From Cinclus cinclus (Eukaryota > Chordata > Aves > Passeriformes > Cinclidae): DNA of 64,000 nucleotides. The notes under the pieces are model-generated. The model did no database searches. It was given only the letters and a program-made list of their open reading frames with translations, and was not told the DNA's origin. The stretch covers positions 5,429,833-5,493,832 of the forward strand of contig NC_085071.1 in assembly GCF_963662255.1 (NCBI RefSeq), read 5' to 3'. Made by a program: the position numbers and the translations under genes. Below, piece after piece: positions 11,060 to 50,500 of this stretch (its first letter is position 1; each line of letters starts with the position of its first letter).

Positions 11060-12050
11060 TGTATTTAATACCTTAAAATTTCTGCTTTATTTCAGTTAAA
11101 ATTCAATTTATTTTATTTTATTTAATTTAAATTCCCAATTCCCAATTCCCACACCAGAACATTTCTCCTTTATTTCAGTTAAAATTCAATTTATTTTATT
11201 TTATTTTATTTTATTTTATTTTAAATTCCCAATTCCCAATTCCCACACCAGAACATTTCTCCTTTATTTCAGTTAAAATTCAATTTATTTTATTTTATTT
11301 TATTTAAATTCCCAATTCCCACACCAGAACATTTCTCCTTTATTTCAGTTAAAATTCAATTTATTTTATTTTATTTAATTTAAATTCCCAATTCCCACAC
11401 CAGAACATTTCTGCTTTATTTCAGTTAAAATTCAATTTATTTTATTTTATTTAAATTCCCAATTCCCATTCCCACACCAGAACATTTCTCCTTTATTTCA
11501 GTTAAAATTCAATTTATTTTATTTTATTTAATTTAAATTCCCAATTCCCATTCCCACACCAGAACATTTCTCCTTTATTTCAGTTAAAATTCAATTTATT
11601 TTATTTTATTTTATTTAAATTCCCAATTCCCACACCAGAACATTTCTCCTTTATTTCAGTTAAAATTCAATTTATTTTATTTTATTTTATTTAAATTCCC
11701 AATTCCCATTCCCACACCAGAACATTTCTCCTTTATTTCAGTTAAAATTCAATTTATTTTATTTTATTTAATTTAAATTCCCAATTCCCACACCAGAACA
11801 TTTCTCCTTTATTTCAGTTAAAATTCAATTTATTTTATTTTATTTAAATTCCCAATTCCCACACCAGAACATTTCTGCTTTATTTCAGTGAAAATTCAAT
11901 TTATTTTATTTTATTTATTTAAATTCCCAATTCCCACACCAGAACATTTCTGCTTTATTTCAGTGAAAATTCAATTTATTTTATTTTATTTTATTTAAAT
12001 TCCCAATTCCCACACCAGAACATTTCTGCTGCTTTTTTTAGGTTAAAATT
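11060..12050 (-). repeat. Array of 13 units of about 70-100 bp, each with a poly(A)-signal-like cassette on the minus strand
   Basis: The array lies directly downstream of the PTP4A2 stop codon, so it is in or just after that gene's 3' UTR. On the minus strand each unit reads ctgaaataaaggagaaat followed by gttctggtgtggg and then an (aaata)n stretch. AATAAA is thus followed about ten bases later by a GU-rich segment, the layout of a vertebrate cleavage and polyadenylation site. The unit nearest the stop codon is the most degenerate. Length varies with the number of TTTTA pentamers. Confidence 0.9.
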
Positions 12051-12068
12051 TCAATTTTTTGGGGTTTT

Positions 12069-12177
12069 TTATTGAACACAGCAGTGCCCATTGGCATCTT
12101 TGAATCGTAATCTCATTTTTGGACGATATTTTTCCAGATAAAGCAGCTGCTTGGAATTAAAAGCTCCTCTCCTTTTC
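12069..12177 (-). CDS. PTP4A2: PTP4A2 coding exon 5 (terminal; polybasic tail and CAAX box)
   Basis: This exon encodes residues 132 (split Gln) to 167 of a PRL-type phosphatase. It includes the RRGAFNSKQLLYLEKYRP segment, a basic stretch with KMRLRFK, and the C-terminal CCVQ. CCVQ is a CAAX box, farnesylated in PRL proteins, which with the basic tail anchors the enzyme to plasma and endosomal membranes. The acceptor is a run of T followed by AG at 12178-12179. The exon is AT-rich, unlike the GC-rich second coding exon. It is easily missed because the frame is short and flanked by repeats on both sides. The stop codon overlaps an AATAAA hexamer. Identity is firm at family level. PTP4A2 rather than PTP4A1/3 follows from NGHCCVQ and the KHDRBS1 neighbour. 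Confidence 0.95.
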
Positions 12178-12389
12178 CTAAAAAAAAAAAAAAATTAAAT
12201 TAAATTAAAAAAAAAATTAAAATCAGTTTAAAAAAAAAAAAAAAGCAGAATTTTGGTTATTTTAGGGAAATTTTTGGGGGGTTTTAATGGGAATTTTAGT
12301 GGGAAAAAGTGAATTTTTTCATGGTGTTTTCATGATAAATTCTGATTTTTCTCACGATATCACAATCTGAAATATTTCCATTTTTTTCC

Positions 12390-46588: not shown

Positions 46589-46599
46589 GTGAGAAAAAT

Positions 46600-48445
46600 T
46601 AAATCAAATTAAATAAAATAAAATAAAATAAAATTTCCTTTTTATTCGGTGAGGATTTTATTAAAAATTCCATTCATTTTATTCATTTATTTGCAATTTA
46701 TTTTTATTTTTTTCCATTTATTAAAGCATTTTTTTTTATATATTTTTGAACTGGAGGAAGGTTCAGTGAGAGAATAAAATGAAATAAAATAAAATAAATA
46801 AAATGAAATAAAATAAAATAAATAAAATAAAATGAAATAAAATAAATAAATTAAACAAAATAAACTAAATAAAATAAAATAAAATTTCCTTTTTATTCTC
46901 TGAGCATTTTATTAAAAATTTATTTTTATTTTTTTTTCACTTTATTAAAATGAATTTTTTTATATTTCTGAACTGGAGGAAGATTCAGTGAGAGAATAAA
47001 ATGAAATAAAATAAAATAAATTAAATAAAATAAAATTTTTATCCTCTGAGGATTTTATTAAAAATTCCATTCATTTTATTCATTTATTTGCAATTTATTT
47101 TTATTTTTATTCATTTTATTAAAATCGATTTTTTTATATTTCTGAACTGGAGGAAGGTTCAGTGAGAGAATAAAATAAAATGAAATAAATAAAATAAAAT
47201 AAATAAAATAAAATAAAATTTCCTTTTTATTCTGTGAGGATTTTATTAAAAATTCCATTCATTTTATTCATTTATTTGCAATTTATTTTTATTTTTTTTC
47301 ACTTTATTAAAATGAATTTTTTTATATTTTTGAACTTGAGGAAGGTTCAGTGAGAGAATAAAATGAAATAAAATAAATTAAATAAAATAAATGAAATAAA
47401 ATTTAATTTCCTTTTTATCCTCTGAGGATTTTATTAAAAATTCCATTCATTTTATTCATTTATTTGCAATTTATTTTTATTTTTTTCCATTTATTAAAAT
47501 CAATTTTTTTTATATTTTTGAACTTGAGGAAGGTTCAGTGAGAGAATGAAATAAAATGAAATAAAATAAATAAAATTAAATTAAATGAAATAAACTAAAT
47601 AAAATAAAATAAAATTTCCTTTTTATCCTCTGAGGATTATATTAAAAATTTATTTTTTTTTCACTTTATTAAAATGAAATTTTTTATATTTTTGAACTGG
47701 AGGAAGGTTCAGTGGGAGAATAAAATGAAATAAAATAAAATAAATTAAATAAAATAAAATTTTCTTTTTATCCTGTGAGGATTTTATTAAAAATTCCATT
47801 CATTTTATTCATTTATTTGCAATTTATTTTTATATTTTTCCATTTATTAAAACATTTTTTTTTATATTTTTGAACTTGAGGAAGGTTCAGTGAGAGAATG
47901 AAATAAAATGAAATAAAATAAATAAAATTAAATTAAATGAAATAAACTAAATAAAATAAAATAAAATTTCCTTTTTATCCTCTGAGGATTATATTAAAAA
48001 TTTATTTTTTTTTCACTTTATTAAAATGAAATTTTTTATATTTTTGAACTGGAGGAAGGTTCAGTGGGAGAATAAAATGAAATAAAATAAAATAAATTAA
48101 ATAAAATAAAATTTTCTTTTTATCCTGTGAGGATTTTATTAAAAATTCCATTCATTTTATTCATTTATTTGCAATTTATTTTTATATTTTTCCATTTATT
48201 AAAACATTTTTTTTTATATTTCTGACCTGAAGGAAGGTTCAGTGAGAGAATAAAATAAAATAAAGAAAATAAAATAAATAAAATAAATAAAATAAAATTT
48301 AATTTCCTTTTTTTCCTCTGAGGATTTTATTAAAAATTCCATTCATTTTATTCATTTATTTGCAATTTATTTTTATTTTTTTCCATTTATTAAAATCAAT
48401 TTTTTTATATTTTTGAACTGGAGGAAGGTTCAGTGAAAAAAAACC
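46600..48445 (+). repeat. About 180-bp tandem repeat resembling the end of exon 3
   Basis: Units start with tcctttttatcctctgagga, then ttttattaaaaattccattc, tttgaactggaggaaggttc and agtgagagaataaaatg, followed by an (aaata)n run of variable length. ggaaggttcagtgagagaat aligns with the exon 3 end and donor (gaaaggttccatgagagata, then GTGAGA), so the units probably derive from the exon-intron boundary. Two consecutive blocks near 47520-48200 are almost identical. Confidence 0.85.
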
Positions 48446-48959
48446 CTGAAAATAAAATTAAAAATAATTTTTTTTTTTGCCCAAAATCCCTCTTAAATTA
48501 ACAAAAAAAATGAAAATATAAAAAGAAAAAAATAAGATTTTTTTCCTTCTAATTTTTTTTCCCAAAAATCCTTTCTCAAATTAAAATAAAATGAAAATAA
48601 TAAAAGAAAAAATTAGATTTTTTTCCTTTTAAATTTTTTTTGCCCAAATCTCTTCTCAAATTAACAAAAAAATGAAAATAAAAAAAGAAAAAAAATAAGA
48701 TTTTTTTTCCTTTTAATATTTCTTGCCCAAAAAACCCTAAAAAAACCCAAAAAATTTTTTTTTTCCCTTTTCAAACTCCTTGTCCAAAATACACCAAAAA
48801 AAAAATTAGAAAAAACAAAATCTTATTTTTTTTTCCTTTTTTTTTTTTTTGATATTTTCTACCCAAAATCCCCCCCCCAAAAAAAAATCAGATTTTTTTA
48901 ATTTTTATTTTATATTTTCTCCTAAATAAAAAATCCATTTTTAACCCTTTCCTGTATTA

Positions 48960-50500
48960 TTTATTTTCCACTTCCAGGATCAGTAAAAATAATTTTTTTT
49001 TTCCCAAATAATTCCATTTTTAACCCTTTCCTGTATTTTTTTTTCCCACTTTCAGGATCAATAAAAATATTTTTTTTTCCCCAAATAATTCCATTTTTAA
49101 CCCTTTCCTGTATTTTTTTTTTCCCACTTTCAGGATCAATAAAAATATTTTTTTTTCCCCAAATAATTCCATTTTTAACCCTTTCCTGTATTATTTTTTT
49201 CCCACTTCCAGAATCAATAAAATAAGATTTTTTCCCCCAAATAATCTCATTTTTAACCCTTTCCTGGATATTCCTCAGGAGCAAAAAAAGAAGATTTTTT
49301 CCCCCCAAATAATTCAAATTTTAACCCTTTCCTGTATTTTTTTTTTTCCCACTTTCAGGATCAATAAAATAAGATTTTTCCCCCAAATAATCCCGTTTTT
49401 AACCCTTTCCTGGATATTCCTCAGGAGCAAAAAAAGAGGATTTTTTCCCCAAAATAAACCCATTTTTAACCCTTTCCTGCACTCCCCCAGGATCAATAAA
49501 AAGAGGATTTTTTCCCCAAAATAAACCCATTTTTAACCCTTTCCTGCATTCCTCAGGATCAATAAAAAGAGGATTTTTTTTCCCCAAATAATCCCATTTT
49601 TAACCCTTTCTTGCATTGCCCCCAGGATCAATAAAAAGAAGATTTTCCCCCCCAAATAATTCCATTTTTAACCCTTTCCTGTATTATTTTTTTTCCACTT
49701 TCAGGATCAATAAAATAAGATTTTTCCCCCAAATAAACCCGTTTTTAACCCTTTCCTGGATATTCCCCAGGATCAATAAAAAGAGGATTTTTTCCCCAAA
49801 ATAAACCCGTTTTTAACCCTTTCCTGCACTCCCCCAGGATCAATAAAAAGAGGATTTCCCCCCCAAATGAACCCGTTTTTAACCCTTTCCTGGATATTCC
49901 CCAGGATCAATCAAAAGAGGATTTTTTCCCCAAAATAATCCCATTTTTAACCCTTTCCTGCATTCCTCAGGATCAATAAGAAGAGGATTTCCCCCCCAAA
50001 TGAACCCGTTTTTAACCCTTTCCTGCACTCCCCCCAGGATCAATAAAAAGAGGATTTCCCCCCAAATAATCCCATTTTTAACCCTTTCCTGCACTCCCCC
50101 AGGATCAATAAAAAGAGGATTTCCCCCCCAAATGAACCCGTTTTTAACCCTTTCCTGGATATTCCCCAGGATCAATCAAAAGAGGATTTTTTCCCCAAAA
50201 TAATCCCATTTTTAACCCTTTCCTGCATTCCTCAGGATCAATAAGAAGAGGATTTCCCCCCCAAATGAACCCGTTTTTAACCCTTTCCTGCACTCCCCCC
50301 AGGATCAATAAAAAGAGGATTTCCCCCCAAATAATCCCATTTTTAACCCTTTCCTGCACTCCCCCAGGATCAATAAAAAGAGGATTTCCCCCCCAAATGA
50401 ACCCGTTTTTAACCCTTTCCTGCACTCCCCCAGGATCAATAAAAAGAGGAATTTTTCCCCAAATAATCCCATTTTTAACCCTTTCCTGCACTCCCCCCAG
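48960..50500 (+). repeat. About 65-bp minisatellite carrying the exon 4 branch point, pyrimidine tract and 3' splice site
   Basis: About 22 units of the form catttttaaccctttcctg, cactcccccag, gatcaataaaaagaggattt, ccccccaaataat. The final unit runs into exon 4 (ccctttcctgcactcccccc then ag/GAGGAAGAG). Thus a TTTTTAAC branch-point-like motif, C/T tract and AG are present in each unit. Older units near 48960-49210 have ttttttcccacttncag tracts. A block of four units (about 49870-50130) is repeated immediately (about 50130-50400). Confidence 0.95.

What the first reader, a model, noticed from the sequence alone, without database searches (positions are those of the whole stretch)
11060..50500. 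Minisatellites seeded at RNA-processing signals of two neighbouring genes
At least four, probably five, independent arrays in this window have units that contain the processing signal of the exon they touch. They are poly(A)-like cassettes after the PTP4A2 stop (11060-12050), the 5' splice site of PTP4A2 coding exon 3 (17735-18900), the 3' splice site of the candidate PTP4A2 leader exon (24441-25500), probably the end of KHDRBS1 exon 3 (46600-48445), and the 3' splice site of KHDRBS1 exon 4 (48960-50500). In each case the genuine site sits at the exon-proximal end. Unit sequences are unrelated, so this is recurrent. I infer that exon edges act as founders for tandem expansion on this chromosome, perhaps through R-loops or replication pausing, and that purifying selection fixes the array edge at the exon. 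The result is many ready-made spare splice or cleavage sites. I know of no description of this pattern as a class.
Basis: partly seen in the sequence, partly recalled or inferred. Interest (0 to 1): 0.85.

Follow-up and report, generated by a model that had tools for sequence, protein, structure and literature searches.

The report
Introns stuttering up to splice sites
Introns of two neighbouring genes are mostly made of tandem repeats, and at a few exon edges the repeated unit includes the splice site itself, giving rows of spare splice sites; a very similar phenomenon has already been described in chicken.

Summary
PTP4A2 and KHDRBS1 models with open frames have 14 coding exons and 24 canonical splice junctions. 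The array after KHDRBS1 exon 3 carries a copied exon tail but not the donor. The 3'UTR array has poly(A)-like cassettes in 11 of 12 units, but the stop-proximal unit lacks the hexamer. The leader exon is unverified, and its array runs past the proposed site.
Random founders explain the crossings (expected 1.3-1.4; P(>=3) 0.13-0.17). The KHDRBS1 exon 4 unit is related to an array in a PTP4A2 intron, antisense there.
The class is in print: avian 'sequence stuttering' (PMC12954441) and amphioxus 'mirages' (PMC3087553). I file this as a new member of a known kind.

The parts
17699..18906 (-). PTP4A2 intron 3 array, 89-nt unit, 13 donors GCAG|GTCAG; the genuine donor is the first copy (last exon base 18903)
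18903..19033 (-). PTP4A2 coding exon 3 (131 nt)
48930..50500 (+). KHDRBS1 intron 3 array, units 65-79 nt apart, 23 acceptor-like modules (TTTTAAC, branch-point-like by recall; pyrimidine-rich stretch; AG); the last one is the genuine exon 4 acceptor
50501..50647 (+). KHDRBS1 coding exon 4
46589..48460 (+). KHDRBS1 intron 3 array next to exon 3; 9 copies of an exon-3-tail-like core; donor not kept in copies
46472..46588 (+). KHDRBS1 coding exon 3
11080..12036 (-). PTP4A2 3'UTR array, about 76-nt unit; AATAAA plus GU-rich cassette in 11 of 12 units
24411..25540 (-). array upstream of PTP4A2 exon 1, about 113-nt unit, 8 copies CCAG|GTGTT; leader exon unverified
13212..14668 (+). PTP4A2 intron 4 array (120/364-nt unit) related to the KHDRBS1 exon 4 acceptor unit, on the strand antisense to PTP4A2
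41617..44220 (+). KHDRBS1 intron 1 array, 55-nt unit, 34 strong donor-like sites with no coding-exon 5' splice site beside it; a counter-example to founding by an exon edge

Best explanation
This is intronic tandem-repeat turnover of the kind called sequence stuttering in chicken. Short stretches are tandemly duplicated and then expanded and homogenised all along the introns (step inferred; slippage or template switching followed by unequal exchange or conversion). Arrays grow until they meet sequence that selection will not let change, namely exon ends and core splice sites (the depletion at edges is shown, the cause inferred). Where a duplicated stretch happened to include the junction, the genuine splice site became the end copy of the array. 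At the PTP4A2 exon 3 donor and the KHDRBS1 exon 4 acceptor the working site now shares its core with its decoys, so it evolves together with them (inferred from the sequence). The decoys are tolerated, I infer, because the genuine site is the one next to the exon body, and because decoy use spoils the reading frame: 22 of 22 exon 4 decoys give an in-frame stop, 18 of them at nt 6; none of the 12 exon 3 decoys gives the normal protein.
For: Both reading frames open and all 24 junctions GT-AG. Arrays fill 67-70% of intron bases and thin out towards exons. Random founders explain the number of junction-crossing arrays. Decoys and genuine sites share their core sequence. Fate of decoys. The published phenomenon copies exon edges with donor or acceptor sites into introns (PMC12954441, sections 7, 8 part 1, 9 and 16 read). 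In amphioxus, mirages with spare AG/GT signals are said not to interfere with regular splicing (PMC3087553 passages).
Against: The published exon-stuttering screen, rerun here on the plus strand of each gene, gives 0 of 14 exons with a qualifying hit. The junction arrays are AT-rich (GC 0.16-0.37), while the paper links stuttering to GC-rich, G-quadruplex-prone DNA. The exon 4 unit is related to an array in another gene, while the paper calls expansions strictly local. Two arrays with an edge within 6 nt of an exon are marginally more than random (P 0.05). Exon-side homology alone is not above shuffles at PTP4A2 exon 3 (P 0.89) and KHDRBS1 exon 4 (P 0.67). Length polymorphism, one of three main features in the paper, could not be tested.
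Confidence: 0.72

Rival explanations
1. Exon edges are preferred founders: the splice-site consensus (CAG|G), R-loops or pausing at exon edges start tandem expansion there.
For: Two arrays start within 6 nt of an exon edge (P about 0.05, cut-off chosen after the fact). Consensus units with a strong donor: 3 sense, 0 antisense; with an acceptor: 1 sense, 0 antisense (24 arrays).
Against: Array coverage is lowest at edges. 3 of 24 junctions against 312 of 400 random points are spanned. Donor-bearing sense units are not clearly above shuffled units (3 against 3.67, 2.57 and 1.59 expected at thresholds 5, 6, 7), and one donor-rich array (41617-44220) has no coding-exon 5' splice site beside it.
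Confidence: 0.13
2. The exon 4 acceptor array belongs to a dispersed minisatellite family: a non-local repeat unit spread to two introns about 34 kb apart, and its pyrimidine-rich strand supplied or overwrote the exon 4 acceptor.
For: A 17-mer with up to 2 mismatches occurs 35 times in the window, 23 in the exon 4 array and 12 in the PTP4A2 intron 4 array (chance mean 0.12). The relation runs along the whole unit (score 55, maximum of 200 shuffles 41).
Against: The orientation in PTP4A2 is antisense. No copy of the family elsewhere could be searched, since no bird genome was available. The direction of spread is unknown. It explains only one of the arrays.
Confidence: 0.3
3. The spare sites have been selected as regulators, for instance poison-exon-like down-tuning of KHDRBS1 or PTP4A2 through nonsense-mediated decay, or tandem poly(A) sites.
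For: Each of the 22 exon 4 decoys gives an in-frame stop, 18 at nt 6. The 3'UTR cassette has AATAAA plus a GU-rich stretch in 11 of 12 units.
Against: Stops are expected in AT-rich sequence. Most copies are similar to one another, so motif retention needs no selection. No RNA evidence.
Confidence: 0.07
4. Assembly artefact: the arrays are collapsed, expanded or invented.
For: Tandem arrays are hard to assemble; the source assembly is unknown.
Against: Diverged copies grouped at one end of arrays, a repeating order of unit types and open frames argue against simple artefact; copy numbers may still be wrong.
Confidence: 0.05

Closest known systems
Avian 'sequence stuttering' / 'exon stuttering' (Hron et al. 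2026, PMC12954441)
   Same: Introns packed with local repeat arrays, intact exons, exon edges with donor or acceptor copied into the intron, potential alternative splicing
   Different: Here the exon part is 2-6 nt at two junctions and degenerate at the third, so the published screen misses it (0 of 14 exons); arrays are AT-rich; one unit is shared between two genes; length polymorphism and chromosome type untested
Amphioxus 'mirages' (Adh3, globins; PMC3087553 passages)
   Different: The BflGb6 unit there includes the 5' part of an exon (length not seen) and has 3-6 copies; here 13 and 23 copies with only a few nt of exon
Human IFI6 (6-16) minisatellite with multiple splice donors (Turri 1995, not held; passage in PMC4526556)
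   Same: Tandem array giving repeated donors at an exon end
   Different: Use of repeat units as donors is reported there; no RNA data here
Human CBS 31-bp VNTR c.1444_1467+7 at exon 13/intron 13 (passages in PMC2630376, PMC5188458, PMC1395315)
   Same: Repeat unit includes an exon end and the start of the intron
   Different: By its name the unit has 24 nt of exon; copy-number polymorphism known
Tandem-repeat-filled introns of chicken TNFalpha, MRPL52, PCP2 and other genes (PMC6792250 passages)
   Same: Introns filled with tandem motifs
   Different: G-rich, G4-prone motifs; splice-site copies not mentioned in the passages seen

Membership tests
Avian sequence stuttering (PMC12954441) | Introns dominated by locally expanded repeats, units tens to hundreds of bases | tested here: met
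   67-70% of bases of the 12 introns in arrays; many units 16-364 nt, some shorter
Avian sequence stuttering (PMC12954441) | Exons intact, arrays confined between exons | tested here: met
   4 to 48 of 1785 exon bases in arrays, by score cut-off; open frames
Avian sequence stuttering (PMC12954441) | Exon stuttering: exon copies >=20 nt, >=42.1 bits, in adjacent intron | tested here: not met
   No hit of at least 20 nt for any of 14 exons (plus strand only); a gapped search finds a weak copy of the KHDRBS1 exon 3 tail
Avian sequence stuttering (PMC12954441) | Strictly local origin of repeats | tested here: inconclusive
   24 array pairs give blastn hits at 1e-4, many in A-rich or G-rich simple sequence; the exon 4 / PTP4A2 intron 4 pair is the clearest
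Avian sequence stuttering (PMC12954441) | High intraspecies intron length variation | not testable with these tools
   No reads or second genome
Avian sequence stuttering (PMC12954441) | Location mainly on dot chromosomes | not testable with these tools
Mirage-type boundary minisatellite (PMC3087553) | Tandem unit spans an exon-intron boundary | tested here: met
   PTP4A2 exon 3 donor by 4 nt, KHDRBS1 exon 3 donor by 26 nt, exon 4 acceptor by 2-6 nt; exon-side homology alone significant only for KHDRBS1 exon 3
Mirage-type boundary minisatellite (PMC3087553) | Many copies carry AG/GT signals | tested here: met
   12 decoy donors, 22 decoy acceptors (16 by a stricter filter); not at KHDRBS1 exon 3
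Mirage-type boundary minisatellite (PMC3087553) | Regular splicing undisturbed | not testable with these tools
   No RNA data

The most novel reading that the evidence does not exclude
A working splice site can be a member of a minisatellite and evolve in concert with it. The KHDRBS1 exon 4 acceptor, with branch-point-like motif and pyrimidine tract, is one of 23 related units of a repeat family that also occupies, in antisense, an intron of the neighbouring gene; so a non-local repeat took over an essential splice site and keeps rewriting it. This would be 'splice-site stuttering' with almost no exon, AT-rich and invisible to the published exon screen.
Probability: 0.25. Interest if true: 0.6.

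Novelty: new member of a known kind. Interest (0 to 1): 0.4.

Why it matters
It gives a concrete case in which two genes keep rows of 12 and 22 spare splice sites whose core sequence matches the genuine one, so it can test how the spliceosome picks the right site when the local sequence is no guide. It also shows that stuttering-like arrays need not be GC-rich, and that the published screen, which needs 20 nt of exon, would overlook arrays that copy only the splice site.

Tried and rejected
Founder enrichment was tested by rotation of arrays within introns, pseudo-junctions, random-founder simulation and shuffled units. None supports an excess, except that with at most 6 nt of exon overlap two arrays are marginally many (P 0.05; the cut-off was chosen after seeing the data). 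Homogeneity along 23 arrays, as a sign of youngest or oldest copies, shows no consistent direction: the exon end is the more homogeneous one at PTP4A2 exon 3, KHDRBS1 exon 4 and the leader array, and the less homogeneous one at KHDRBS1 exon 3. KHDRBS1 exon 3 acceptor: 6 spanning hits and one of the 3 junctions counted, but its exon head is not above shuffles (P 0.27), so it is not listed as a case. In one search each test stopped at six hits, so the exon 4 acceptor counts as not spanned there while one search gives it 2 spanning hits. Rfam: no match at gathering scores. A four-term search for bird minisatellites, dot chromosomes and introns found no paper. The donor scores use base frequencies recalled from memory and are approximate. 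Units at exon 4 and in the 3'UTR were counted by a motif of the unit itself.

That these genes lie on chicken chromosome 23, not a dot chromosome, is recalled.
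Full report
What the window holds. Two host genes lie head to head: PTP4A2 on the minus strand (coding exons 23676-23581, 21218-21126, 19033-18903, 14771-14697, 12177-12069) and KHDRBS1 on the plus strand (36057-36345, 44364-44491, 46472-46588, 50501-50647, 52989-53125, 54242-54479, 57192-57259, 58826-58884, 62134-62231). 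Their spliced reading frames are open from start to stop and all 24 internal junctions are GT-AG. Tandem arrays cover 57% of the window and 67-70% of the bases of the 12 introns between coding exons. An array near an exon therefore needs no explanation in itself.

The five claimed arrays. (1) PTP4A2 exon 3 donor: a clean array of 89-nt units in which GCAG|GT recurs 13 times, the genuine donor included, at 88-90 nt steps; one copy reads GTCAGG instead of GTCAGC. The 12 spare donors score at least as high as the genuine one with a donor matrix recalled from memory. Homology reaches 4 nt into the exon, and the exon tail alone is no more similar to the array than shuffled sequence (P 0.89). (2) KHDRBS1 exon 4 acceptor: 23 units found by TTTTAACCCTTTCYTG, 65-79 nt apart without a gap, each followed by a pyrimidine-rich stretch (76-94%) and AG, the last being the genuine acceptor. 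A stricter filter passes 16 of the 22 spare ones. Homology reaches 2-6 nt into the exon; the exon head alone is not above shuffles (P 0.67). (3) KHDRBS1 exon 3: 26-32 nt of exon tail recur in the intron in the right order, P 0.0045 against shuffles, in 9 copies, 7 of them at a distance to the next landmark (56-85 nt) like that of the exon (72 nt). The AAG|GTGAGA donor is not among the copied features; 7 of 9 copies have a weaker TTCA|GTGAGA. (4) 3'UTR array: 11 of 12 units combine AATAAA with a GU-rich stretch beginning 8 nt after it, a short spacing for a cleavage site by recall. Of the 14 arrays examined, it has 33 hexamers so placed in sense, the KHDRBS1 exon 3 array 14, the other 12 none. 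The stop-proximal unit lacks the hexamer. Whether any is used is unknown. (5) Leader: 8 copies of CCAG|GTGTT, but the exon is unverified and TRF's array continues 30 nt past the proposed site.

Is there an excess at exon edges? No. With arrays of score 150 or more, coverage is 5.8% at intron nt 1-10, 9.4% at 11-25, 32% at 51-100 and 74% at 401-800. Of 24 junctions 1 has an array at the first intron base (rotated mean 15.8) and 8 have one within 100 nt (rotated mean 17.1; 99.98% of 5000 rotations gave 8 or more). By one alignment test, repeat copies span 312 of 400 random intronic points (at least 100 nt from intron ends) against 3 of 24 junctions, namely PTP4A2 exon 3 donor and both sides of KHDRBS1 exon 3. 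The deeper search adds the exon 4 acceptor, 4 of 24. Because selection would remove arrays from edges in any case, I also placed the founders of the 24 intronic arrays at random in ancestral introns approximated by non-array sequence. With up to 32 nt of exon overlap allowed, 1.3-1.4 arrays should cross a junction, and three or more occur in 13-17% of 4000 runs; with up to 60 nt, 27-34%. With at most 6 nt allowed, two or more, as seen, occur in 5%. The last figure is the only one that leans towards seeding, and its cut-off was chosen after seeing the data.

Are splice-like units special? Among 24 intronic arrays, 3 consensus units hold a donor in sense (expected from shuffled units 3.67, 2.57 and 1.59 at thresholds 5, 6 and 7) and 0 in antisense (expected 1.93, 1.15, 0.68); 1 holds an acceptor in sense (expected 0.37) and 0 in antisense (0.39). 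Counting single sites instead, 25 arrays hold 51 sense and 2 antisense donors scoring 7 or more, 46 of them in two arrays. One of these two, 41617-44220, has 34 strong donors but no coding-exon 5' splice site beside it. A sense bias is present but rests on few arrays.

A result against local founding. The exon 4 acceptor unit is related, along its whole length, to the unit of the PTP4A2 intron 4 array at 13212-14668 (score 55 against a maximum of 41 in 200 shuffles; blastn 75% over 84 nt). The core TTTTTAACCCTTTCCTG, with up to 2 mismatches, occurs 35 times in the window, 12 in one array and 23 in the other. In PTP4A2 it lies on the antisense strand, so it cannot serve as an acceptor there. 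Either a repeat family spread to both introns, or one array seeded the other. Weaker relations exist too: the PTP4A2 exon 3 unit matches the unit of 12395-13150 (score 33 against a shuffle maximum of 24), and the KHDRBS1 exon 3 unit matches other AT-rich arrays.

How it most likely works. Introns turn over by tandem duplication and homogenisation; exon ends and core splice sites resist; where a duplicated stretch included the junction, the working splice site became the end copy. The decoys can be harmless because of position and because of what follows them: joining exon 3 of KHDRBS1 to any of the 22 decoy acceptors gives an in-frame stop (18 of 22 at nt 6), and none of the 12 decoy donors of PTP4A2 gives the normal 167-residue protein (150, 176 or 183 residues instead). 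That the genuine site is preferred, that decay removes errors, and the molecular cause of duplication are inferred.

Comparison with what is known. Hron et al. 2026 (PMC12954441; I read the abstract, sections 7, 9 and 16, part 1 of section 8, and found passages) describe 'sequence stuttering' on chicken dot chromosomes: introns filled with local arrays, exon edges copied with donor or acceptor sites, 236 introns in 115 genes, more than 90% of sources within 1 nt of the exon border, high length variation. [quoted passage not shown] local expansions were also noticed in other birds. The paper does not name KHDRBS1 or PTP4A2 in its main text. Running their screen on this window gives 0 of 14 exons (plus strand only), because the exon part here is too short or too degenerate. 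Amphioxus 'mirages' (PMC3087553, passages) are minisatellite-like duplications of exon-intron boundaries with spare signals that seem not to interfere with splicing. Single human cases are IFI6 (original paper not held) and CBS. Chicken introns made of tandem repeats were described earlier (PMC6792250, passages). What is new here is modest: two arrays that copy a complete splice site with almost no exon, in AT-rich sequence (GC 0.16-0.37 for the five arrays), and one unit shared between genes.

Limits. One window cannot establish a genome-wide rule.

Noticed in passing
41617-44220: KHDRBS1 intron 1 array whose 55-nt unit holds a CAG|GT donor (34 sites score at least 7) preceded by CAG|GAATGG, like a repeated small pseudo-exon, with no coding exon there.
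   Followed up: partly
12395-25540 and 11080-12036: In six PTP4A2 intron arrays and the upstream 'leader' array AATAAA is absent from the sense strand while six of these seven carry 12-113 in antisense; the 3'UTR array has 56 in sense and 0 in antisense. Three KHDRBS1 intron 3 arrays nevertheless have 102 in sense.
   Followed up: partly
13212-14668 and 48930-50500: Two arrays in different genes, about 34 kb apart, share a 17-mer core (12 and 23 times, up to 2 mismatches) and are related along the unit.
   Followed up: yes
21126-21218: PTP4A2 exon 2 is GC-rich and diverged from the recalled human protein (66% identity over 32 residues, against 85% over 26 in the exon 4 match and 87% over 39 in the exon 5 match).
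   Followed up: no
12066-12076: The PTP4A2 stop codon lies inside an AATAAA hexamer (CAATAAAAAA), about 50 nt before the GU-rich part of the first, hexamer-less 3'UTR unit.
   Followed up: no
50708-52484 and 55939-56583: G-rich arrays of KHDRBS1 introns 4 and 6 are related to each other (about 74% identity).
   Followed up: no
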